A stretch of DNA of 64,000 nt from Neorhizobium galegae bv. orientalis str. HAMBI 540 (lineage in GTDB: Bacteria > Pseudomonadota > Alphaproteobacteria > Rhizobiales > Rhizobiaceae), in the NCBI RefSeq assembly GCF_000731315.1, contig NZ_HG938353.1:1922001-1986000 (forward strand). Reading direction: 5' to 3'. The notes below the pieces were generated by a model. It did no database searches. It was not told the origin of the DNA and saw only the letters and a program-made list of their open reading frames with translations. The position numbers were made by a program, and so were the translations under genes. Below, in pieces: positions 1,204-53,011 of the stretch (its first letter is position 1; each line of letters starts with the position of its first letter).

Positions 1204-3261
1204 TCATCTCCCCGTCCGGATCTGCAAAGGCGTGCCCGCAAAATGACAGGCAGCCTTCTGTCCGGTACCAGTTTCCTTGAGGCTTGGCGAACTGGTGGAA
1301 CAGATTTCCCGCTCCGGAAAATACGCCGGCCCGATCGGACAGCGGGTGCGGAAACGGCAGCCGCTCGGCGGATTGGCCGGGCTCGGCATATCGCCGGCGA
1401 GTACGATCTTCTCCTGTGGCGCATCGAGCACCGGTTCCGGCGTCGAGGAAATCAGCGCCGCCGTATAGGGATGCTGCGGAGAACCGTAGACCTGTTCGGC
1501 CGTGCCGATCTCGACGATCCTGCCGAGATACATCACCGCGACATTATCGCTGATATGGCGCACCACCGAAAGGTCATGGGCGATGAACAGGTAACCGAGC
1601 CCAAGGTTGTCGCGCAGTTCCTCCAGGAGATTGATGATCTGCGCCTGGATCGAGACGTCGAGCGCCGAGACCGGCTCGTCGCAGATCAGAAGCTTCGGTT
1701 CGGTGGCAAGCGCTCGCGCAATGCCGACGCGCTGACGCTGGCCGCCGGAAAGCTCGTAGGGATAACGTTCGAGGAAATCCTCGTTCAGTCCGACCCGCTG
1801 CAGCAATTCGACCGAGCGCTGCCGCGCTTTCTCGCCGTGGATGCCGGCGACCCGGAGTGCTTCGCTGAGCGACTGGGCGATGCTGCGGCGCGGATTGAGC
1901 GAGGCGAACGGGTCCTGGAACACATATTGGATGGTGCGGGTGATCGTGTCGCGATCCTCCTGATCCATCGCACTGACATCGCGGCCGGCGACAGTGATCC
2001 GGCCCTCGGCGACCGGATTGATGCCGACGATGGTGCGCGACAGCGTGGACTTGCCGCAACCGGATTCGCCGACAAGGCCCAGCGTTTCTCCGGGACGGAT
2101 CTCGAGCGATACGCCGTCCACCGCAAAGATCGGCTTGGCATTGGAAAAGAACGATCCCGAACCGCGATTGACGTCCGTCCTGAGGTCCTCGATCCTCAGG
2201 ACAGGCTCGCCCGAAAGGGTTCTCCGGGTCTTGCGCGCAAGACCTTCTTCTTCCGGTGCGACGGGCATGCCTGTGGCCGCGGTCACCCAGCAGGCGGCGG
2301 AATGGCCGGGGGCCAATGCCTCCAGTTTCGGCACGTCCGTGCGGCATCGATCGACCGCGAAGTGACAGCGCGGATGGAAGGCGCAGCCGGAGGGAAGCCG
2401 CGCTGGCGTCGGCGGCGAGCCGGGAATGGCGCGCAGCTGGCTGCCGGTATCGCTGTCGATGCGCGGCACGGAATGCAGCAGCGCCGCGGTGTAGGGATGG
2501 CGCGGCGCGGAAAAGACATCGGCTACCGTACCTCGCTCCACGACCCGGCCGCCATACATGACGACGAGATCGTCGCAAAGTTCGGCCACCACGCCCATGT
2601 CGTGGGTGATCATGATGATCGACAGGCCGAGCTCGTCCTTCAGGTCGCAGAGAAGCCGCAGGATCTGCGCTTGGATCGTCACGTCGAGCGCCGTGGTCGG
2701 TTCGTCGGCGATCAGCAACGAAGGCTTGTTGGCGAGCGCGATGGCGATCACCACACGCTGGCGCATGCCGCCGGAAAACTGGTGCGGATACTGGTCGAAA
2801 TTGTGCTCCACATCCGGAATACCGACCTGCCGCAGCAGGTCGAGGGCCCGCTCGCGCGCTGCTGTCCGGCCCGCGCCATGAACGACAAGCGCCTCGGCGA
2901 TCTGTTCGCCGACGGTCATCACCGGGTTCAGGGCCGCCTGTGGGTCCTGGAAGACCATGGCGATATCCTTGCCGCGGATCTTGCGCATCTCGGTTTCCGG
3001 CAGGCCGACGAGATTACGGCCGTTGAACATTACCTTGCCGGTATCGATCCGGCCGGGATGGCGCAGCATGCCGAGGACCGAGCGTACGGTGACCGACTTG
3101 CCGGAACCGGATTCGCCGACGATGCCGAGAACCCGTCGCGGTTTCACCTCGAAGGAGACGTTGTCGATGATGCGGATATTCGTATGCCGGCCGGCGAAGG
3201 AGGCAGACAGCCCCTCGACATTCAACAGCGGCGCAACGGACTGGACTGAAATGTCGGTCAT
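1204..3261 (-). CDS. Peptide-type ABC transporter, fused double ATP-binding protein
   Basis: 685 residues holding two complete OppD/OppF-type ATPase domains in one chain. The first has Walker A GESGSGKS near residue 49, signature SGGMRQR and Walker B LLIADEPT. The second has GESGCGKS, LSGGQRQR and LLICDEPVSALD. Each is followed by the oligopeptide C-terminal motif with two cysteines (GCAFHPRC and GCRFRTRC). The ATG at 3261 overlaps the permease stop as ATGA. The reading frame stays open upstream, but those extra residues are a shadow of the permease gene. It powers import through the two permeases. The substrate is unknown: peptides, glutathione or another small anionic compound are all possible for this family. 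Confidence 0.92.
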   Translation of the reverse strand: MTDISVQSVAPLLNVEGLSASFAGRHTNIRIIDNVSFEVKPRRVLGIVGESGSGKSVTVRSVLGMLRHPGRIDTGKVMFNGRNLVGLPETEMRKIRGKDIAMVFQDPQAALNPVMTVGEQIAEALVVHGAGRTAARERALDLLRQVGIPDVEHNFDQYPHQFSGGMRQRVVIAIALANKPSLLIADEPTTALDVTIQAQILRLLCDLKDELGLSIIMITHDMGVVAELCDDLVVMYGGRVVERGTVADVFSAPRHPYTAALLHSVPRIDSDTGSQLRAIPGSPPTPARLPSGCAFHPRCHFAVDRCRTDVPKLEALAPGHSAACWVTAATGMPVAPEEEGLARKTRRTLSGEPVLRIEDLRTDVNRGSGSFFSNAKPIFAVDGVSLEIRPGETLGLVGESGCGKSTLSRTIVGINPVAEGRITVAGRDVSAMDQEDRDTITRTIQYVFQDPFASLNPRRSIAQSLSEALRVAGIHGEKARQRSVELLQRVGLNEDFLERYPYELSGGQRQRVGIARALATEPKLLICDEPVSALDVSIQAQIINLLEELRDNLGLGYLFIAHDLSVVRHISDNVAVMYLGRIVEIGTAEQVYGSPQHPYTAALISSTPEPVLDAPQEKIVLAGDMPSPANPPSGCRFRTRCPIGPAYFPEREICSTSSPSLKETGTGQKAACHFAGTPLQIRTGR

Positions 3262-4127
3262 TTGCGGTTCACCGTAGCGTTCAAGGCATCGGCCAGCATG
3301 CTGAAGGCAAGCGCGACGAGGATGAGGATGACGGTCGGACCGAGCACATAAGTCGGCGCACGGCTGATATAGCGCATGCCGTTGTTGAGCAGCGTTCCGA
3401 GTGACGGTTCCGGCGGCTGCAATCCAAGCCCGACGATGCTGAGCGCCGCCTCGATGAAGATCGCCGAAACGACAAAGACGGCGCCCTGTACGATGATCGG
3501 GTCGATGGCGTTCGGCAAGATGTGGCGGACCATGATCTGCCATTTACCGACGCCCAGCGTGCGAGCCGCGATGACGTATTCCCGCTGTTGCTGGGCGAGC
3601 AGCGTAGCGCGGGCAAGGCGTCCGAAGCTTGGCAGACCGGAAATGACGATCGCCACCAACAGCGCCGTCCAGCCGGCGCCGAGCACCAGCACGACGCAGA
3701 TGCCGAGGATGAGGCCCGGGAAGCCGACGATGATATCGAGGCAACGCTGCACGAAATTGCCGAGTCTTGGCGAAACTGCCCCGATCAACCCAAGCAGCGT
3801 GCCGGCCACTATGCTGACAGGCACCGCACAATAAACAAGCGTCAGGTCCGACCTTAGCCCGTAGATGCTGCGCACGAAAAGATCGCGGCCGAGTTCGTCG
3901 GTGCCGAAGAAATGCACGAGCGACGGCGCCCGCAACGATTCCCGCGACTGGATGTCGTAGCCGCCGGGAAAGATAAGCGGAGCCAGAAAGGCAAGCGCCG
4001 AGATGAGAATGATCACCGTCAGCGCCGCAATGCCGCGCGTCGTGGTGAACGCCTCCAAGTAGCGGGCGATCGACGGATTGAACCAGTGGCGATGGATAGG
4101 CTTCGATTGCGGTGCGGCCATGGTCAA
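3258..4127 (-). CDS. Peptide-type ABC transporter permease (DppC/OppC class)
   Basis: 289 residues with a cytoplasmic N-terminus, a first membrane segment near residues 31-53 and a periplasmic stretch ending HFFGTDELGRDLFVR, which is typical of OppC-class permeases. The binding-protein-dependent transport domain follows, with the EAA loop visible as EYVIAARTLGVGKWQIMVRH. The start overlaps the stop of the upstream permease (ATGA), so translation is probably coupled. It forms the channel with the DppB-type partner. Confidence 0.92.
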   Translation of the reverse strand: MTMAAPQSKPIHRHWFNPSIARYLEAFTTTRGIAALTVIILISALAFLAPLIFPGGYDIQSRESLRAPSLVHFFGTDELGRDLFVRSIYGLRSDLTLVYCAVPVSIVAGTLLGLIGAVSPRLGNFVQRCLDIIVGFPGLILGICVVLVLGAGWTALLVAIVISGLPSFGRLARATLLAQQQREYVIAARTLGVGKWQIMVRHILPNAIDPIIVQGAVFVVSAIFIEAALSIVGLGLQPPEPSLGTLLNNGMRYISRAPTYVLGPTVILILVALAFSMLADALNATVNRK

Positions 4128-5071
4128 CTCTCCAGCCGGATGCGCGGATCGAGCGCGGCGATGGCGATCTCCGAAAGGAGCTGGATCAGGACGGCGATCA
4201 GTACCGCCCCCAATATCAACGCCTGCAGCACGAGATAGTCGCGGTTCTGGACACTTGAGACCGCAAGCTGGCCAAGCCCGTTACGGGCGAAGATCGCCTC
4301 GATGACGATCGCGCCGCCGAGCAGTTCACCGGCTCTAAGTCCGATCGCGACGATCGCCGGGCCAAGGCTGTTGCGCAAAAGATGGCGGCGCATCAGCCGG
4401 CCCGGGGGTACGCCCTTTGCCTTGGCAAGATCGATGAAGTCTTCACCGCGCACCGAATTGATCGCTGTGGTCAAAAGCCTGGCGACAACCGCCGCCTGCG
4501 GCAGCGCCAGCGCGAAGGCCGGCAGGATGAGGAACTGCAGCCCCTTCAACGGGTCGCGCAGCAGGCCGATCTCACCGCTGACGGGCAGAATCGGAAAGGC
4601 GATGCCGAGCAGCAGGATCAGCAGCAGACCGGTGAGGAAAGGCGGCGTCGCCAGACAGATGGTGTTGAGAATGTCGAGCCCTGCCCTGGCGGACTGATGG
4701 CGCAACGTTGCCGACAGGATGCCGAGCGTGAAGCCGATGATGATCATCAGCATCAGCGCCAGCGCCGCAAGCTCGACAGTGCTTTCCAGCCTGCTCATGA
4801 TCAGCGCCGAGACCGGGCGGCGCATGGCAAATGAGCGTCCGAGATCGCCATGCAGGAGGTTCCACATCCAATGGAAATACTGCTCGTGGAGTGGCCCGTT
4901 GAGGCCGATCTGTTCGCGCACCGCGGCGAGCTGTTCGGGGCTTGCATCCGATCCCGCCAGTGCCACGGCGGGATCGCCGGGCGCCATCCGCGGCAGAATA
5001 AAGGCGATGAGAGAACTCGCAATCGCCACCACCACCACCGACGGGAGTTTCTTGAGGAGGAAGTTCAGCAT
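4124..5071 (-). CDS. Peptide-type ABC transporter permease (DppB/OppB class)
   Basis: 315 residues. The N-terminal segment (PSVVVVAIASSLIAFILPRM) followed by APGDPAV and a periplasmic loop with LHEQYFHWMWNLLHGDLGRS is the usual OppB/DppB signature. Several membrane helices and an EAA loop (DFIDLAKAKGVPPGRLMRRH) follow. It starts one base after the stop of the binding-protein gene and overlaps the next permease, placing it inside a tight operon. Confidence 0.92.
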   Translation of the reverse strand: MLNFLLKKLPSVVVVAIASSLIAFILPRMAPGDPAVALAGSDASPEQLAAVREQIGLNGPLHEQYFHWMWNLLHGDLGRSFAMRRPVSALIMSRLESTVELAALALMLMIIIGFTLGILSATLRHQSARAGLDILNTICLATPPFLTGLLLILLLGIAFPILPVSGEIGLLRDPLKGLQFLILPAFALALPQAAVVARLLTTAINSVRGEDFIDLAKAKGVPPGRLMRRHLLRNSLGPAIVAIGLRAGELLGGAIVIEAIFARNGLGQLAVSSVQNRDYLVLQALILGAVLIAVLIQLLSEIAIAALDPRIRLES

Positions 5072-11206: not shown

Positions 11207-11734
11207 CTACTTGTTCAAGTCCTTGGCCATCTGCAGATGATGTTCGAGCGCCGGGGCAGTCTTTGCCGCCCATGCCTTCAGGTCGGCATTCTCACCTTCC
11301 TTGCCATATCGCTTGAACAAGTCGACGGCATCCTCATGGGCGTCTTCCTGATCCGAATGATACTGCTTGGTGAACTTTGCGCCTTGGAGGCCCTTGAGCT
11401 TGTTGAGCGACTTCGTTTGCGCGTTGGTCATCGCGGTAGGCAGTTTGGCTTTCACCTTGCCGCCGTCGACAAGCTGTTTCAGTTCCGTCGTCGTCTTCTG
11501 GTGGTCCTGAATCATCTGCTGCGCAAACGTCTTCGTCGGCGCATCGGCCCGTTCAGCGGCCAGCTTGCTGGACTCGATCTCGAACATGTCGCTGGTTGCA
11601 GCTTCCGTCACGAAATCCTGGGTCTTCGGAGCAACGCCCACGAGCGAATTGACACCTGATTTCTCTGCCGCGGACTGTGCGAACGCCGAAGTCGTTACCA
11701 TCGCCATGGCAGCCATGAGTGCGATCTTCTTCAT
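11207..11734 (-). CDS. Periplasmic DUF4142 domain protein
   Basis: 175 residues. A signal peptide (KKIALMAAMAMVTTSAFAQS) precedes a helical domain of the DUF4142 type (FVTEAATSDMFEIESSKLAA, then FAQQMIQDHQKTTTELKQLV and HLQMAKDLNK at the end). Such proteins are ferritin-like in fold prediction and often linked to stress loci, but no biochemical role is known. The ATG at 11734 follows AAAGGAGA. Just upstream the ribosome-site segment is duplicated (separate entry). Confidence 0.85.
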   Translation of the reverse strand: MKKIALMAAMAMVTTSAFAQSAAEKSGVNSLVGVAPKTQDFVTEAATSDMFEIESSKLAAERADAPTKTFAQQMIQDHQKTTTELKQLVDGGKVKAKLPTAMTNAQTKSLNKLKGLQGAKFTKQYHSDQEDAHEDAVDLFKRYGKEGENADLKAWAAKTAPALEHHLQMAKDLNK

Positions 11735-11775
11735 GAAATTCTCCTTTCGCATCAAGGAATTCTCTTTTGCATCAA
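11735..11775 (-). repeat. Tandem duplication of the ribosome-site segment
   Basis: Two adjacent near-copies of about 20 bp (11735-11755 and 11756-11775) lie before the DUF4142 gene. On the minus strand both read TTGATGC-AAAG(G)AGAATT. The copy next to the ATG has the stronger AAAGGAGA; the distal copy has AAAAGAGA and the start ends in an in-frame ATG of the proximal copy. Confidence 0.6.
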
Positions 11776-11990
11776 CGCGAACAACGCATTCCTCCTGTTG
11801 TTCCAACACCTACGGAAAATCTCGTTTCGATCCCGGAAAGGCTGAAGGCCATGGCACAAAACGGCCTCTTGAGTGTTTGGATGCTCAATGGAGGCTGAAA
11901 TGAGCACTGAAAAGCAGACGACCGGCTTGAACGACAGGCCCAAGAACGCGCCGATCGGCCAGACCGCCGAAGGCTTGCCACGATCCGGCA

Positions 11991-12281
11991 TTGGAGAGCG
12001 GCGATGCGACGCACGGGCGGCTGGTATTTACGGCAGGCAGCTGCGCCGCTTGCCACGCAACGCCGGGCCAGCCGGACCCACTGAAACTGGGCGGCGGTCT
12101 GGCGCTCGCCTCTCTCTTCGGAACCTTCAGGGTTCCCAATATTTCCCCTGATGCCACCGACGGAATCGGCTCGTGGTCGGTCGCCGACCTGGCGAACACG
12201 CTGATCGCCGGCGTCTCTCCGGCAGGTCGACACTATTATCCGGCCTTCCGCATCCCTGATAATCACTGTTCGTTGAGATAA
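11991..12281 (+). pseudogene. Cytochrome c fragment (N- and C-terminally truncated)
   Basis: A frame starting at a TTG encodes about 85 residues of a class I cytochrome c: heme site SCAACH preceded by DATHGRLVFTAG, followed by LGGGLALASLFGTFRVPNIS and ADLANTLIAGVSPAGRHYYP. This pattern belongs to membrane dehydrogenase cytochrome subunits. Similarity stops after PAF near 12246 and the frame ends in unrelated residues. No signal peptide or ribosome site is present upstream. The usual three-domain protein is about 400 residues, so this is a remnant. Confidence 0.7.
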
Positions 12282-47657: not shown

Positions 47658-48587
47658 CTACAGATAGCGCTTGATATGCCACCGGTCGTGGTACCAGAGC
47701 CACTGTTCGGGATATTCGCGAACCCAGGTTTCCACCTTGTCGTTGAGCAACTGACCGGTGGCCTGGAGATCGAGTTTGCCGTTCGCGTCCCGCGGCAGTT
47801 CGATCTTCGGTTCGATCTCAAGCCGGAAGCGATTGCCCGGCAGCCGGATGCAGCGGGCCGGATAAACTTCCGCATCGAATTGCCGAACCAGCTTTGCAAG
47901 CAATGGGCTCGTCTGGACGGGCTGCCCGAAAAAGCTGGTCTTGAGGCCCTTGCGGAATTTCTGATCCACCAGAACGCCGACACCGCCGCCCGTTTCGAGC
48001 TTGCGCGCCAGAGCAAACGAAGAGCCGGCATGCGATGGCACCAGCTGTCCCATGCGGGCACTGCGGAAGGCGAAGACCTTGTCGGCGATATAAGGATTGT
48101 TCGGCGGCCGGAACAGCACCGTCACTTCGAGGCCGAAGGCATTGCCGGCGACCGGCAGCAGTTCGAAATTACCCGTGTGGGCCGTGAAGACGATGAACGG
48201 CCGCGGATTATCGCGAAGATCGACGAAGATCGGCACGCCGGAGACTTCCACTCTCCCCGGCTTGTCCTGTTCGGGATCGAAATCGAACAGCCGGTCGAGG
48301 AACACGTATTCGGCGGCGAGCCTGCCCATATGGCCCCAGCTCGCTATGGCGATCTCCTCAAGCTCCTCGTCGGTCTTTTCCGGATAGGCGTTGCGCAGGT
48401 TGACGAGCATCAGCTTGTGGCGGCCAAGCTTCGGCCCGATGCGCCGCGCCATCCGGTCGGCGAACCGGATGCCCGGATCCGCGGGAAAGATCTTCAGGAA
48501 ATTCAGGAGCCCGAACGCGCTCTGCGCCACCAGCCATTGCTGGAAGTGGAGTAACGCCAGAGCGATCCGGGTAAGGAACATCTTCAC
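47658..48587 (-). CDS. lpxXL: Lipid A very-long-chain (C28) acyltransferase
   Basis: 309 residues of the LpxL/HtrB family. The H-x4-E catalytic motif is HTGNFE at 137-142, followed by RPPNNPYIADKVF, GVLVDQKFRKG and the C-terminal YPEQWLWYHDRWHIKRY. In Rhizobium LpxXL transfers 27-hydroxyoctacosanoate from AcpXL to lipid A. I use the GTG at 48587, giving MKMFLTRI, which matches the known N-terminus style and has GAGG upstream; an ATG lies at 48581. It is the last gene of the acpXL operon, ten bases after the dehydrogenase. Confidence 0.92.
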   Translation of the reverse strand: MKMFLTRIALALLHFQQWLVAQSAFGLLNFLKIFPADPGIRFADRMARRIGPKLGRHKLMLVNLRNAYPEKTDEELEEIAIASWGHMGRLAAEYVFLDRLFDFDPEQDKPGRVEVSGVPIFVDLRDNPRPFIVFTAHTGNFELLPVAGNAFGLEVTVLFRPPNNPYIADKVFAFRSARMGQLVPSHAGSSFALARKLETGGGVGVLVDQKFRKGLKTSFFGQPVQTSPLLAKLVRQFDAEVYPARCIRLPGNRFRLEIEPKIELPRDANGKLDLQATGQLLNDKVETWVREYPEQWLWYHDRWHIKRYL

Positions 48588-48597
48588 GGGGGACGCC

Positions 48598-49626
48598 TCA
48601 GTCCATCCGGAGCACGATCTTGCCGAACACCTGGCGGGTTTCCATCCGCTCCAGCGCCTTGTCGATCTCGGCGAAGGTGACTTCCGTGTCAATCACCGGA
48701 TGAACGATGCCTTGAGCCATCTTCTGCATGGCATTGGCCATGTTCTCCATGCGGCAGCCGAACGAGCCGAACAGCTTCAGCTGCTGCTGGAAGAGCATCA
48801 TCAGGTTCATGTCGGTCGAGACGCCGGACGTGGAGCCGCAGGTGACGAGGCGGCCGCCGCGCTTCATGCACAGCATCGAGCCGGCCCAGGTATCCTTGCC
48901 GACATGTTCGAAGACTACGTCGACGCCCTTCTTCTTGGTGAGCTTGCGCACGACGCCCTCGAAACGATCAACGCGGTAGTTGATGACGTGATCTGCGCCG
49001 AGCGCTTTGGCTCGTTCGATCTTATCGTCCGAGCCGACCGTGGTGATCACCGTGCAACCGATCTTTTTCGCGAGCTGGATCGCCGCCGAGCCGATGCCCG
49101 AGCCGCCGGCATGGACCAGGATGGTTTCGCCCGGCTGCAGCTTGGCATTGTCGAACAACATGTGCTCGACAGTCCCGAAGGTGACCGGCGCCAGTGCTGC
49201 GGCAACCGCATCGACGCCCGGAGGCGCCGGCACCAGCAGGCGGGCCGGAAGGTTGGCCTTTTCCTGCGCAAAACCGTCAAGATGGAAACCGTGCACGCCG
49301 GAAACGTGTTCGCAGAGGTTGTCGCGCTTCTCGCGGCAGGGCTTACACAGGCCGCAGGTGCGCGCGCCGTAGATCGACACGAGCTGGCCCGGAAGGACGT
49401 TCGAAACGCCCGGCCCGATCGCCTCGACGACGCCGGAGGCTTCCGCTCCGATCGTCAGCGGCATCTTGCGCTTGGCGAACGCCATGCCGCGCCAGCCCCA
49501 GACGTCGATATGGTTGAGCGCGACGGCTTTGACCCGCAGCGTCACCTCGCCCGGCCCGGGGGCTTCCGGCTCGGGAATGTCCACCGCTTCGAGCTTCCGG
49601 TCATCGATCAGTTGCAGAGCGCGCAT
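48598..49626 (-). CDS. adh2XL: Zinc-binding dehydrogenase of the VLCFA cluster
   Basis: 342 residues, MDR superfamily. It has the structural zinc cysteines (CGLCKPCREKRDNLC), the Rossmann motif HAGGSGIGSAAIQLAKKIGC and SMLCMKRGGRLVTCGSTSG. The usual catalytic-zinc Cys is replaced by the LNHIDVW motif, as in this dehydrogenase subgroup. It could act as an enoyl reductase or as an enzyme of omega-1 hydroxyl handling for the C28 chain; its exact step is not settled in what I know. Position within the cluster is the evidence for its pathway. Confidence 0.85.
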   Translation of the reverse strand: MRALQLIDDRKLEAVDIPEPEAPGPGEVTLRVKAVALNHIDVWGWRGMAFAKRKMPLTIGAEASGVVEAIGPGVSNVLPGQLVSIYGARTCGLCKPCREKRDNLCEHVSGVHGFHLDGFAQEKANLPARLLVPAPPGVDAVAAALAPVTFGTVEHMLFDNAKLQPGETILVHAGGSGIGSAAIQLAKKIGCTVITTVGSDDKIERAKALGADHVINYRVDRFEGVVRKLTKKKGVDVVFEHVGKDTWAGSMLCMKRGGRLVTCGSTSGVSTDMNLMMLFQQQLKLFGSFGCRMENMANAMQKMAQGIVHPVIDTEVTFAEIDKALERMETRQVFGKIVLRMD

Positions 49627-49685
49627 AATAGGTCTTCCTTCGCCCGGAGGCGTCCCAATTCGTCAAACGTGATTGGCGACGGTCT

Positions 49686-50972
49686 CTAAGCTGGTTCCAG
49701 CGTCATGACAAGGCTGGCGTTCTGTCCGCCGAAGCCGAACGAGTTGGAAAGCACCGCCTTCGGCTGCCCATCCCGCTTCTTGTTCGGCACCACATCGAGC
49801 ACGATCGTCGGATCGGGGTTGGTGTAGTTGATGGTCGGCGGCAGCGTACCGGTCAGCATCGTCTGGATGGAGAAGACGGCTTCGACAGCGCCGGCCGCAG
49901 TCAGCGTATGGCCAATCATCGACTTGTTGGAGGAAACCGGAATTTCCTTCAACCGATCGCCGAAGACGGCGAGCATCGCGCCATACTCCATCTTGTCGTT
50001 TTCCGGCGTCGAGGTGCCATGGGCGTTGATATAGCCGATGCCGCTTTCGTCCATGCCGGCATCAGCAAGCGCTGCGCGGATCGTCGCAATCGCCGGGCCG
50101 CCGTCAGGCGAGGAACGGGTGCGGTGGAAATGGTCGGCCTTTTCGCCGCAGCCCTTCACGATGCCGAGCACCTTCGCACCGCGGGCGATTGCCGATTCGA
50201 GCGATTCGAGCACCAGCGTCGCCGCACCTTCGGCGATGACGAAACCGTCGCGATCCTTGCTGAACGGCTTTGACGCCTTTTCCGGCGGATCGTTCTGGGT
50301 GGACAAAGCAGACAGAAGCGAGAAGCGGATGAGTGCTTCGGCGCTGACCGAACCGTCGGTCGCCACCACCAGCGAGCGCTCGGTGCGGCCCTGACGGATC
50401 GCTTCGACGCCGAGCTGGATGGCGGTGACACCAGAGGCGCAGGCCGTCGAGAGGGTCACGGGCAGTCCGCGGGTGCCGAACTTGTCGGCAAGGCGTTCGG
50501 AGATCGAGCCGAACTGCACGGCTTCGAGGAAGACCGGGTCCGGACGTTCGCGCATGGCGGCGAGGAAACGGTCATAGGCGTCACCTTCGACCTTCGACGG
50601 CGGAGCGCGGTCGGCAAGCGCGAAACGATCGCTCCATTCCGGCTCGACCGGCGGTGCTGCAAGAAAGAGCGGCCCGTCGAAATCACCTGAAAGACCCGAC
50701 TGCGCAAGCGCTTCGACCGTCGTCTCGCGGGCAAAGGCGAAGGAACGTTCGACAGAGTTTTCAGCCGGAACGGCGATGAAATCCACCGTGCCAGCGATGC
50801 GGGTGGAAAGGCCCTCGGTCGGGAAGCGGGTCACCTTGTGGATGCCGGAGGTGCCGGAGGTCAGCGCCGCCCAGTTGTCGGCAAGGCCCTGGCCGAGCGA
50901 GGTGATGACGCCCATGCCGGTGATCGCGATGATCGGGCGGCCGAGATGATCCTTGAAGCGGTTGTCGCTCAT
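49686..50972 (-). CDS. fabF1XL: Beta-ketoacyl-ACP synthase II homologue (active copy) for VLCFA
   Basis: 428 residues with a full condensing-enzyme triad: Cys178 in STACASGVTAI, His318 in NAHGTSTPEND and His354 in KSMIGHTLTAAGAVEA, plus Lys350. It elongates acyl chains on AcpXL for the C28 acid. GGAG is five bases before the ATG at 50972; another ATG is at 50975. The gene follows fabF2XL after ten bases. Confidence 0.92.
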   Translation of the reverse strand: MSDNRFKDHLGRPIIAITGMGVITSLGQGLADNWAALTSGTSGIHKVTRFPTEGLSTRIAGTVDFIAVPAENSVERSFAFARETTVEALAQSGLSGDFDGPLFLAAPPVEPEWSDRFALADRAPPSKVEGDAYDRFLAAMRERPDPVFLEAVQFGSISERLADKFGTRGLPVTLSTACASGVTAIQLGVEAIRQGRTERSLVVATDGSVSAEALIRFSLLSALSTQNDPPEKASKPFSKDRDGFVIAEGAATLVLESLESAIARGAKVLGIVKGCGEKADHFHRTRSSPDGGPAIATIRAALADAGMDESGIGYINAHGTSTPENDKMEYGAMLAVFGDRLKEIPVSSNKSMIGHTLTAAGAVEAVFSIQTMLTGTLPPTINYTNPDPTIVLDVVPNKKRDGQPKAVLSNSFGFGGQNASLVMTLEPA

Positions 50973-50982
50973 CATAGCTCCT

Positions 50983-52182
50983 TTACGCGGCCGAGAGGAC
51001 TGCAAGGCCCTCGCCGCGCGTATAACCGACCGTCGTCACCACTGCGTGTTTCGCAGGCGCCGTCATCGGCTTTTCGTTCTGGGCATCGAATGTGGGAACT
51101 TTTGCCGCGCCATCCAAGGTCAATGCCGCAAGCGCCAGACCCAAGGGGAACTGCGCTTCCATGCCGTGGCCGGTGACGCCGCCAAATCCGCGGATCGCAG
51201 CGCCGGGGAATTCGGTCTCCAGCAGCGCCTTCTCCCGCGTCGCGAGATCGACGACGCCGCTCACGCCCGAAAACACGATCGTATCGGCCTTGGAAATGCC
51301 CGACGCATGGCCGGCGAGACGGGCGAGGCGCTTTTCGAGGCGCCCCTCGTCACGATTGCCACGATCGCCCTCGATCGCATCGATGACAGCGTAGATATGG
51401 GCGCCGCGCGCTTGTGCATGGGCGCGCGATTCGAGCACCAGGAAGGCCCCGACCGTGCCCATGATCATGCCGCCGCCATTGTCGGCCGAGCGCGACCAGA
51501 GCGGATGCCAGCCACCCGTCGCATGCGCACGAATACCCTCGACAAGAAGGATGATGTCGGCGCGTTCGGCGACGAAGGCGCCGCCGACCAGGCTGTGGGT
51601 GGATTGGCCCGCCTTGATACGGTGGAAGGCGGTCTCGACGGCGGAAATGCCGGCAGCCTCTTCGCCCATGAAGGTGCGCGACGAACCGGTGACCTTGTGG
51701 ACGATCGAGATATTGCCGGCGACCAGGTTGGAAAGCTGCGCCAGAAACAGCGTCGGGCGAAGCTCGGTCGTCAGCTTCTCGTTGAGCAGCATTTCGCGGT
51801 CGTTGCGCTTCAGCGCTTCGTCGACGATCAGCGAATCGACCTTGATGTCGCGCTCGCCGCCGCCGGCGGCCACGATCATGTCCATGGAAGCGCAGGCTTC
51901 CGCATCCGTCTTCAGGCCAGCGTCGTCGAGCGCAAGGCCTGCAGAAAACACGCCGAGCCGCTGCCAGTTCTCCATCTGGCGCTGGTCGCCACGCTTGGCG
52001 ATCTGCGCAGACCAGTCGATCTCGGGCATCGGATGCACCGGATACGGCGCGAAACGATCGGTCTCGACTTTCGGGGCGCCCGCTTCCGGCGACGACAGGA
52101 GCGCGATATGCGGCTCCTTGCCCACGCCCTGGCTGGTGACGATCCCGATACCAGTGATCACGACATCATTGTCAGACTTCAT
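50983..52182 (-). CDS. fabF2XL: Beta-ketoacyl-ACP synthase-like protein lacking catalytic Cys
   Basis: 399 residues with the overall condensing-enzyme fold (DVVITGIGIVTSQGVG, LAQLSNLVAGNISIVHKVTG, GFGGVTGHGMEAQ). Where active enzymes have TACASG, this protein reads GEEAAG (173-178), so the nucleophile is Glu175. The first catalytic His (HGTxTxxND) is missing too: the region near 305 reads FSGVSGVVDLA. The second His (His339, in TGHG) remains. It cannot do standard condensation by itself. A chain-length-factor-like partner of FabF1XL is the simplest reading. Confidence 0.9.
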   Translation of the reverse strand: MKSDNDVVITGIGIVTSQGVGKEPHIALLSSPEAGAPKVETDRFAPYPVHPMPEIDWSAQIAKRGDQRQMENWQRLGVFSAGLALDDAGLKTDAEACASMDMIVAAGGGERDIKVDSLIVDEALKRNDREMLLNEKLTTELRPTLFLAQLSNLVAGNISIVHKVTGSSRTFMGEEAAGISAVETAFHRIKAGQSTHSLVGGAFVAERADIILLVEGIRAHATGGWHPLWSRSADNGGGMIMGTVGAFLVLESRAHAQARGAHIYAVIDAIEGDRGNRDEGRLEKRLARLAGHASGISKADTIVFSGVSGVVDLATREKALLETEFPGAAIRGFGGVTGHGMEAQFPLGLALAALTLDGAAKVPTFDAQNEKPMTAPAKHAVVTTVGYTRGEGLAVLSAA

Positions 52183-52221
52183 AATGTCCTCTTTGACCCA
52201 CCGGACTGAACGGGCGGGTTT

Positions 52222-52695
52222 TTATGCGCTTGCGGCAATCGCATCCATCAGGCCGACCTCTTCCGCACGCTTGCGGATGACCGGCGCCAGCGGGATTTCG
52301 CTGAACGGCATGGTGCGCAGTTTGAGCTGTGCGTCGCAGACCTTCTTGCCGTTACACGTGATCTTTGCCTTGGTCACCGCGTAACCGGATCCCTCATGCT
52401 CCAGAAACGCCTCGATGTCGAGAACCGCGTCGGGCTCCACAAAGGCGCGCATCTTGGCGCCGTCGACCGACATCAGGAACGGCATCGCGGCGAAATCGGT
52501 GGCGGCAAGCACCAGGAAACCGGAGGCCTGCGCCATGGTCTCGATCAGGAGCACGCCCGGCACCAGCGGCATTCCGGGAAAATGGCCTTCGAAGACAGGG
52601 CTTTTGGAAGGCACGACAGACCGCGCCTTCAACACTTTGGCCCCAAGATCGACCGCTTCGACGCGGTCGATCATCTGGAAATATTCGAGCAGCAT
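52222..52695 (-). CDS. fabZXL: (3R)-hydroxyacyl-ACP dehydratase of the VLCFA cluster
   Basis: 157 residues, FabZ hot-dog fold. The catalytic pair is present: His38 in FEGHFPGMPLVPGVL and Glu52 in LIETMAQASGF. It removes water from hydroxyacyl-AcpXL during C28 synthesis. It is a little longer at the C-terminus than housekeeping FabZ. It lies 31 bases after acpXL and 39 before fabF2XL. Confidence 0.92.
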   Translation of the reverse strand: MLLEYFQMIDRVEAVDLGAKVLKARSVVPSKSPVFEGHFPGMPLVPGVLLIETMAQASGFLVLAATDFAAMPFLMSVDGAKMRAFVEPDAVLDIEAFLEHEGSGYAVTKAKITCNGKKVCDAQLKLRTMPFSEIPLAPVIRKRAEEVGLMDAIAASA

Positions 52696-52726: not shown

Positions 52727-53011
52727 TCAGCCCTTGGCCGCCTTCAGCTCGTCGATCTTGGCACACAGGTTCTTCAGGACGAAGTACTCTTCGGTCGAAA
52801 CCTTGCCCTCGTTGACTTCCTGGGTCCACTGTTCCAGCGGAATCTTGATCCCGAATTCCTTGTCGATGGCGAACACGATATCCAGGAAGTCCAGGCTATC
52901 GATGCCCAGGTCATCGATCGTGTGACTTTCCGGCGTGATCGTCTCGCGATCGATTTCGCTGGTCTCAGCGATGATGTCGGCAACTTTATCGAATGTAGCT
53001 GTCACGCCCAT
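52727..53011 (-). CDS. acpXL: Acyl carrier protein AcpXL for very-long-chain lipid A acyl group
   Basis: 94 residues, strongly acidic. The phosphopantetheine serine is Ser39 in [15 protein letters not shown]. The extra sequence [20 protein letters not shown] distinguishes AcpXL from the 78-residue housekeeping AcpP. It carries the growing 27-hydroxyoctacosanoyl chain until LpxXL transfers it. It is the first gene of the six-gene minus-strand cluster. No clear consensus promoter was found in the 117 bp upstream. Confidence 0.95.

What the first reader, a model, noticed from the sequence alone, without database searches (positions are those of the whole stretch)
49686..52182. Active FabF1XL paired with a catalytically dead FabF2XL
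FabF1XL keeps Cys178, His318 and His354. FabF2XL has Glu175 in place of the cysteine (GEEAAG instead of TACASG) and lost the first histidine, while keeping His339. This is the pattern of the ketosynthase/chain-length-factor pair of type II polyketide synthases. The pair may form a heterodimer that sets the unusual C28 length on AcpXL. I do not know of a description of this as a chain length factor.
Basis: partly seen in the sequence, partly recalled or inferred. Interest (0 to 1): 0.7.

Follow-up and report, generated by a model that had tools for sequence, protein, structure and literature searches.

The report
Dead ketosynthase paired with live one
In rhizobia and related bacteria, one of the two 'synthases' that build the very long fatty acid of the outer membrane has lost its catalytic residues and most likely works as a fixed partner that shapes its active neighbour's pocket, much as chain-length factors do in antibiotic and omega-3 synthases.

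Summary
FabF2XL (50983-52182, -) has Glu175 at the catalytic cysteine and also lacks the first histidine and the active-site lysine; FabF1XL (49686-50972, -) keeps Cys-His-Lys-His (second His is 355, not 354). It is a family trait: Glu in 265 of 266 FabF2XL rows, Asp in one; Cys in 260 of 261 FabF1XL rows, one unreadable. Of 397 genomes of the order, 111 have FabF2XL and 112 FabF1XL over the cut-offs; 290 of 295 FabF2XL genes lie directly before FabF1XL. Conservation is reciprocal: FabF1XL conserves catalysis but not the partner-facing segment, FabF2XL the reverse, FabF both. A fused model has pTM 0.94 and matches the PfaC KS-CLF didomain over its length. In print, a fabF2XL mutant lacks the fatty acid. 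Best reading: an obligate one-site, KS-CLF-like heterodimer. That FabF2XL sets C28 length is plausible but untested. Descent from polyketide CLFs is neither shown nor excluded. Coevolution and the AlphaFold negative control were uninformative.

The parts
50983..52182 (-). fabF2XL: catalytically dead ketosynthase homologue (399 aa), proposed chain-length-factor-like partner
   Evidence: NCBIfam NF005084, 602.6 bits against cut-off 320; Pfam N-terminal KS domain only
49686..50972 (-). fabF1XL: active-type ketosynthase (428 aa from MSDN; an ATG one codon upstream is also possible)
   Evidence: NCBIfam NF005076, 753 bits against cut-off 629; Cys178, His318, Lys350, His355
51658..51660 (-). codon of FabF2XL Glu175, at the place of the catalytic Cys
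   Evidence: E in 265 of 266, D in 1
51166..51168 (-). codon of FabF2XL His339 (second active-site His, kept in 226 of 266)
51694..51762 (-). FabF2XL residues 141-163: segment proposed to cap the partner's pocket, among the most conserved of the protein
   Evidence: 99th percentile of windows in FabF2XL, 10th for the same segment in FabF1XL
50439..50441 (-). codon of FabF1XL Cys178 (nucleophile)
   Evidence: C in 260 of 261, one unreadable
50978..50982 (-). AGGAG, ribosome-binding-type sequence between the fabF2XL stop and the fabF1XL start (gap 7 or 10 nt); translational coupling is likely (inference)
   Evidence: sequence read, checked
52727..53011 (-). acpXL, the dedicated acyl carrier protein
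   Evidence: NF005079, 190.5 bits; upstream of fabF2XL in 268 of 275 loci with enough flank
52222..52695 (-). fabZXL, 3-hydroxyacyl-ACP dehydratase
   Evidence: FabA-like Pfam domain; upstream in 255 of 275 loci
48598..49626 (-). adhXL, zinc-type dehydrogenase of the cluster
   Evidence: Pfam PF00107/PF08240; homologue on the same strand in 60 of 79 loci and 79 of 80
47658..48566 (-). lpxXL, acyltransferase for the very long chain on lipid A (start codon uncertain)
   Evidence: NF005120, 472.6 bits

Best explanation
FabF1XL and FabF2XL form an obligate heterodimer with one working active site. FabF1XL supplies Cys-His-Lys-His and the gating loops and condenses malonyl units on the AcpXL-bound chain. 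FabF2XL, a ketosynthase fold without catalytic residues, packs across the dimer interface and supplies the wall and cap of FabF1XL's acyl tunnel, and perhaps part of the AcpXL docking surface. By holding the end of the tunnel it probably lets the chain grow to C26-C30 and sets where it stops, as a chain-length factor does. Shown here: loss of catalytic residues across the sampled family, near-absolute pairing, selection on both genes. Shown in print: requirement of fabF2XL for the very long fatty acid in Agrobacterium. Inferred: heterodimer, one-sided pocket. Hypothesis: length setting.
For: (1) Residues: Glu at the Cys site in 265/266 FabF2XL rows (Asp 1); no His at the first-His column and no Lys at the Lys column in the 263 rows with a letter there; FabF1XL Cys 260/261, first His and Lys 261/261. 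(2) Co-occurrence: 111/397 and 112/397 genomes over the cut-offs; the extra genome, G224, has FabF2XL in two contig pieces. Adjacent in 290/295. Six loci hold the pair twice; the second FabF2XL copy reads KGEE in all six, its FabF1XL keeps TACASG, and in three loci the C-terminal half of that FabF2XL copy is diverged or shortened. (3) Reciprocal conservation: segment 128-150 (E. coli FabF numbering) ranks at percentile 99 in FabF2XL, 10 in FabF1XL, 71 in FabF; four catalytic segments rank 94-99 in FabF1XL, 96-99 in FabF, 38-74 in FabF2XL. FabF residues ~140-180 lie in the FabF dimer interface (PMC5206705, passage). (4) AlphaFold model of a naturally in-frame FabF2XL-FabF1XL pair read through its stop: pLDDT 92.0, pTM 0.94 across a disordered linker; Foldseek matches PfaC KS-CLF 6riw over 950 columns, TMq 0.74, against about 0.45 for the single ketosynthase chains above it. 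(5) Agrobacterium fabF2XL mutant: no very long fatty acid, partly restored by a plasmid carrying fabF2XL (PMC11901934, section 2.2 read; construction in passages). (6) Polyketide CLFs also carry an acidic residue next to the replaced Cys: [ED]Q in five of five fetched (four annotated as CLF, one taken as CLF from its place after a KS), EE here.
Against: No physical data. AlphaFold has seen ketosynthase homodimers and would favour a dimer; my negative control (FabF1XL-Adh, 19 rows) gave pLDDT 63.7 and pTM 0.45 with FabF1XL itself poorly folded, so specificity is not shown. The segment in (3) was picked after a first profile had shown the contrast, not beforehand; ten segments were looked at. 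Direct coupling analysis was uninformative (Neff 91 at 80% for 815 columns). In five polyketide KS/CLF pairs the KS keeps a fairly conserved cap, so cap relaxation is not a general mark of KS-CLF pairs. Two of 295 FabF2XL genes have no FabF1XL beside them, though both genomes hold one elsewhere. Nothing tested links FabF2XL to chain length.
Confidence: 0.78

Rival explanations
1. FabF2XL is a separate homodimer with another activity, for example a decarboxylase that primes the pathway or a hydrolase using the Glu pair.
For: The Glu pair is almost invariant (263 of 266), more than structural need alone would suggest.
Against: The first His and the Lys, which take part in decarboxylation in known ketosynthases (recalled), are absent in the 263 rows with a letter there; the other catalytic segments are relaxed while the partner-facing segment is among the most conserved; co-occurrence and adjacency with FabF1XL are near absolute.
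Confidence: 0.08
2. FabF2XL is a structural or docking subunit only: it stabilises FabF1XL and recruits AcpXL, without setting chain length.
For: FabF2XL has Arg at the column of FabF Arg68, a residue of the published AcpP docking site (PMC7138838, passages), in 17 of 17 aligned rows; FabF1XL has Arg there in 1 of 17 and a gap at 62-65 in 17 of 17 (alignment uncertain in that stretch). The mutant phenotype is total loss, not a changed length.
Against: The conserved segment is the one expected to line the partner's pocket (the pocket contact itself is recalled). Overlaps with the best explanation, which includes it in part.
Confidence: 0.3
3. FabF2XL is an active ketosynthase with an unusual nucleophile, as current annotation implies.
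For: NCBIfam and papers name it beta-ketoacyl-ACP or 3-oxoacyl-ACP synthase (PMC11901934 and PMC7663294, passages).
Against: Cys, first His and Lys are absent across the sampled family; Glu would not hold a thioester-linked chain (established chemistry).
Confidence: 0.02

Closest known systems
PUFA synthase KS-CLF didomain (PfaC, PDB 6riw)
   Same: Live KS next to a KS-like domain without active residues; used for long chains (the KS-CLF didomain elongates C10 and very long C20 substrates, review PMC9702510, passages); the fused model aligns over 950 columns, TMq 0.74.
   Different: Fused megasynthase domains in the order KS-CLF; here separate proteins in the order dead-live, a dedicated AcpXL, lipid A as acceptor.
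Type II polyketide KS-alpha/KS-beta (chain-length factor)
   Same: Adjacent genes, dead partner, acidic residue beside the replaced Cys ([ED]Q in five fetched, EE here).
   Different: Glu in place of Gln; three CLFs checked keep Lys and have Asp at the first His and Arg at the second, FabF2XL lost Lys and first His and mostly keeps the second; gene order reversed; common clade not resolved (76/25 and 88/59).
ApeO-ApeC of aryl polyene synthesis
   Same: KS-CLF heterodimer in a fatty-acid-like pathway of Gram-negative bacteria; ApeC has lost most of its second thiolase half (PMC8358021, passages), recalling the diverged or shortened C-terminal half of some FabF2XL duplicates.
   Different: FabF2XL of the main locus is full length; the product is a secondary metabolite there, lipid A here.
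FabF (KASII) homodimer
   Same: Nearest by sequence among solved structures: E. coli FabF chains 104-106 bits, against 66 for 6smo_C (a CLF chain by recall) and 61 for the actinorhodin synthase 2 chain 1tqy_B.
   Different: Two identical live sites; here catalysis and the partner-facing segment are conserved in different genes.

Membership tests
NCBIfam NF005084 (PRK06519) | score over curated cut-off | tested here: met
   602.6 bits against 320
Active beta-ketoacyl-ACP synthase (as annotated) | Cys nucleophile with His, Lys, His | tested here: not met
   Cys 0 of 266; first His 0 and Lys 0 of 263 rows with a letter there; second His 226 of 266
KS-CLF pair (functional kind) | dead partner encoded next to a live KS | tested here: met
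   290 of 295 adjacent
KS-CLF pair (functional kind) | heterodimer with the partner shaping the live pocket | tested here: inconclusive
   pTM 0.94 and whole-length match to 6riw, reciprocal conservation; no valid negative control, no experiment
KS-CLF pair (functional kind) | partner sets product length | not testable with these tools
   needs mutants and lipid A analysis
Type II polyketide CLF | Gln at the Cys site | tested here: not met
   Glu 265 of 266, Asp 1; Gln in five of five fetched CLFs, one of which is not annotated as CLF
Type II polyketide CLF | other active-site changes as in fetched CLFs (first His to Asp, Lys kept, second His to Arg) | tested here: not met
   three CLFs against FabF2XL
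Type II polyketide CLF | common descent with CLFs | tested here: inconclusive
   FabF2XL its own clade 100/100; joined to CLFs with 76/25 and 88/59, long branches

The most novel reading that the evidence does not exclude
The very long chain of alphaproteobacterial lipid A is measured by an obligate one-site KS-CLF heterodimer in primary envelope metabolism, arisen separately from polyketide and PUFA CLFs, in which the FabF2XL cap and its nearly invariant Glu pair set C26, C28 or C30.
Probability: 0.4. Interest if true: 0.82.

Novelty: new variant of a known kind. Interest (0 to 1): 0.68.

Why it matters
How rhizobia, Agrobacterium and relatives make and stop a C28 chain on AcpXL is not explained in the passages read here, which list two ordinary condensing enzymes. 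If one is a dead partner, its name in databases and papers misleads, the loss of the fatty acid in a fabF2XL mutant has a mechanism, and chain length becomes testable with changes in one non-catalytic subunit. It would add an essential or near-essential envelope lipid to the known uses of KS-CLF pairs.

Tried and rejected
Coevolution: mean-field direct coupling on 259 paired rows (815 columns, 571 used) gave no interpretable inter-protein signal; Neff was 91 at 80% and the residue numbering in that printout is only approximate. Not used.

AlphaFold negative control: fused FabF1XL-Adh, 19 rows, gave pLDDT 63.7 and pTM 0.45 with FabF1XL itself poorly folded, probably because the alignment is shallow; it cannot serve as a control.

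Tree: the idea that FabF2XL belongs to the polyketide CLFs is neither supported nor rejected; FabF1XL+FabF2XL as one clade was not rejected either (p-AU 0.158). The short APE CLF row was left out of the trees. L003's first ORF pick was a wrong frame and was dropped later.

Taxonomic reach: 18 of 385 genomes in the class draw, 15 of them outside the window's order; 28 of 299 in the phylum draw, none outside the class, but the output does not say how many of the 299 lay outside it.

Papers: one search listed 20 of 101 papers, 25 of 270, 12 of 83; unlisted ones were not looked at. A role of the Glu pair as decarboxylase or hydrolase was considered and ranked low (rival 1).

Second structural aligner: library not available.

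Full report
What is there. The window is from a Neorhizobium-like genome: FabF2XL is 98% identical to that of Neorhizobium sp. SHOUNA12A. On the - strand lie acpXL, fabZXL, fabF2XL, fabF1XL, adhXL and lpxXL, the known cluster for the very long fatty acid of lipid A (PMC11901934, passages). fabF2XL ends 7 or 10 nt before the fabF1XL start, with AGGAG in the gap.

The residues. FabF2XL has Glu175 at the place of the nucleophilic Cys. Over 266 rows (window, 260 distinct pairs, 5 unpaired; 265 distinct sequences) the column is Glu in 265 and Asp in one. At the first-His column none has His, and at the Lys column none has Lys, in the 263 rows with a letter there; 38 rows have a His within four columns of the first-His column. 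The second His is kept in 226. In 261 FabF1XL the Cys is kept in 260 (one unreadable), the first His and Lys in 261, the second His in 260 (one gap). Both Glu of GEE are present in 263 of 266. The 15 sequences of the class-wide draw that come from outside the window's order all have Glu too. So the protein is a dead ketosynthase by inheritance, not by recent decay; dN/dS against six relatives is low.

Pairing. In an even draw of 397 genomes of the order, 111 exceed the curated cut-off for FabF2XL and 112 for FabF1XL. Adjacent pairs were seen in the 30 loci and in 79 of the 80 loci; the 80th, L099, is a second copy in a genome whose first copy is paired. In G128 the end of FabF2XL lies beside FabF1XL on one contig (rows); the 112th genome, G224, has FabF2XL in two contig pieces. 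In all held loci 290 of 295 FabF2XL genes are directly followed by FabF1XL. Of the five others, L225, L289 and L304 sit at a contig or locus end (L225 with a partial FabF1XL next to it), and L099 and L222 are separations; both genomes hold FabF1XL elsewhere. Some genomes were fetched by more than one call; identical pairs were removed before residue counts, not before this count. acpXL is found upstream in 268 and fabZXL in 255 of 275 loci with enough flank. Six loci carry the pair twice; the second FabF2XL reads KGEE in all six and its FabF1XL keeps TACASG. In three of these loci the C-terminal half of the second FabF2XL is diverged (L072) or short (L078, L071); the L071 copy could be a broken gene or an assembly fault.

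Reciprocal conservation. I compared 261 FabF1XL, 261 FabF2XL and 30 FabF sequences (29 from the order, one E. coli) column by column. A first profile had shown the contrast, so the segment was not chosen blind; ten segments were then looked at. Four catalytic ones (E. coli FabF 161-172, 300-308, 332-345, 396-403) rank at percentiles 96-99 in FabF and 94-99 in FabF1XL but 38-74 in FabF2XL. Segment 128-150 ranks at 71 (its part 128-142 at 91) in FabF, 99 (97) in FabF2XL and 10 (6) in FabF1XL. Segment 104-127 is low in FabF1XL too (0, against 30 in FabF and 63 in FabF2XL). The strand before the Cys, 153-162, is high in FabF and FabF2XL (90, 95) and middling in FabF1XL (68). In Listeria FabF residues about 140-180 lie in the dimer interface (PMC5206705, passage), which covers only the later part of 128-150; that Phe133 and Val134 reach the partner's pocket is recalled. 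The simplest reading is that tasks which each FabF subunit does for itself and its twin are split here: FabF1XL catalyses, FabF2XL caps. The alignment of FabF1XL to FabF in this stretch is uncertain, but the low conservation is within the FabF1XL family. A caution: in five polyketide KS/CLF pairs the KS keeps a fairly conserved cap, so this split is not a general KS-CLF mark.

Structure. An in-frame natural neighbour pair (L031, same family as the window) was read through its stop and modelled with 57 like rows: mean pLDDT 92.0, pTM 0.94, linker 395-412 disordered. Foldseek against the PDB (50 rows shown) lists single ketosynthase chains first, TMq about 0.45, and at rank 50 the PfaC keto synthase-chain length factor 6riw with 950 alignment columns, TMq 0.74, TMt 0.67, rmsd 6.5: the two-subunit arrangement resembles a known KS-CLF didomain. 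AlphaFold's prior for ketosynthase dimers and the failed control limit this.

Genetics in print. In Agrobacterium fabrum a fabF2XL insertion removes the very long fatty acid from lipid A, and a plasmid with fabF2XL restores part of it (PMC11901934, section 2.2 read; constructs in passages). In Bradyrhizobium ORS278 fabF1XL, fabF2XL, acpXL and fabZXL could not be mutated (PMC5613085, passages). A protein without catalytic residues is thus required, which a CLF-like role explains. The insertion may also lower fabF1XL expression, which would fit the partial restoration (inference).

Comparison. Among solved structures the nearest by sequence are FabF chains; CLF chains score lower (6smo_C is a CLF by recall). 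The motif GEEAAG resembles the SEQAGG-type motif of the fetched CLFs, but FabF2XL differs in the residue itself and in the other losses, and trees do not settle descent. By function the PUFA synthase KS-CLF is the nearest, since that didomain handles C20 chains (PMC9702510, passages).

In print or not. One search listed four papers that name fabF2XL (20 of 101 matching papers were listed, those with more terms first); in these four (passages) neither 'chain length factor' nor 'heterodimer' occurs. One search found no paper with 'chain length factor', 'very long chain fatty' and 'lipid A'. In one search one of the 12 listed papers (of 83) holds 'chain length factor', a polyketide paper seen only in the listing. 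Subscription journals, where much early work on this cluster appeared (recalled), are mostly not held, so a statement there cannot be excluded.

Verdict. Dead partner: near certain. Obligate heterodimer with one live pocket: likely. Control of C28 length by FabF2XL: open, about even. New variant of the KS-CLF kind. The recount changed no count that the odds rest on.

Noticed in passing
L071, L072, L078 (second copies near 11422-12147, 3462-4598, 3088-4053): Duplicate FabF2XL copies that keep the interface half and the GEE motif while the C-terminal half is diverged (L072) or short (L071, L078), each beside a FabF1XL copy with TACASG; recalls the half-size CLF ApeC.
   Followed up: partly
L077, L083, L086: The fabF2XL-fabF1XL pair is duplicated in tandem as a unit; the second FabF2XL copy reads KGEE instead of MGEE.
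   Followed up: partly
L113 4498-5688: The only FabF2XL of 266 with Asp instead of Glu at the Cys site (GEDPGG).
   Followed up: no
L310 5691-6980 and L317 5700-6989: Streptomyces plasmid ketosynthases, near copies of each other in the tree; the L310 one has Ala at the Cys site (GTADSG) but keeps His, Lys and His. Their clusters hold two further ketosynthases and two dehydratases.
   Followed up: no
FabF1XL about 50475-50543 (-): This FabF1XL segment is far more variable than the same segment of FabF, and FabF1XL has a gap at the FabF 62-65 stretch beside the ACP-docking residues, where FabF2XL has residues.
   Followed up: partly
window 48391-49689 (+) and 50953-52209 (+): Long open frames of 432 and 418 aa opposite the cluster; probably mere mirror frames of GC-rich genes.
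   Followed up: no
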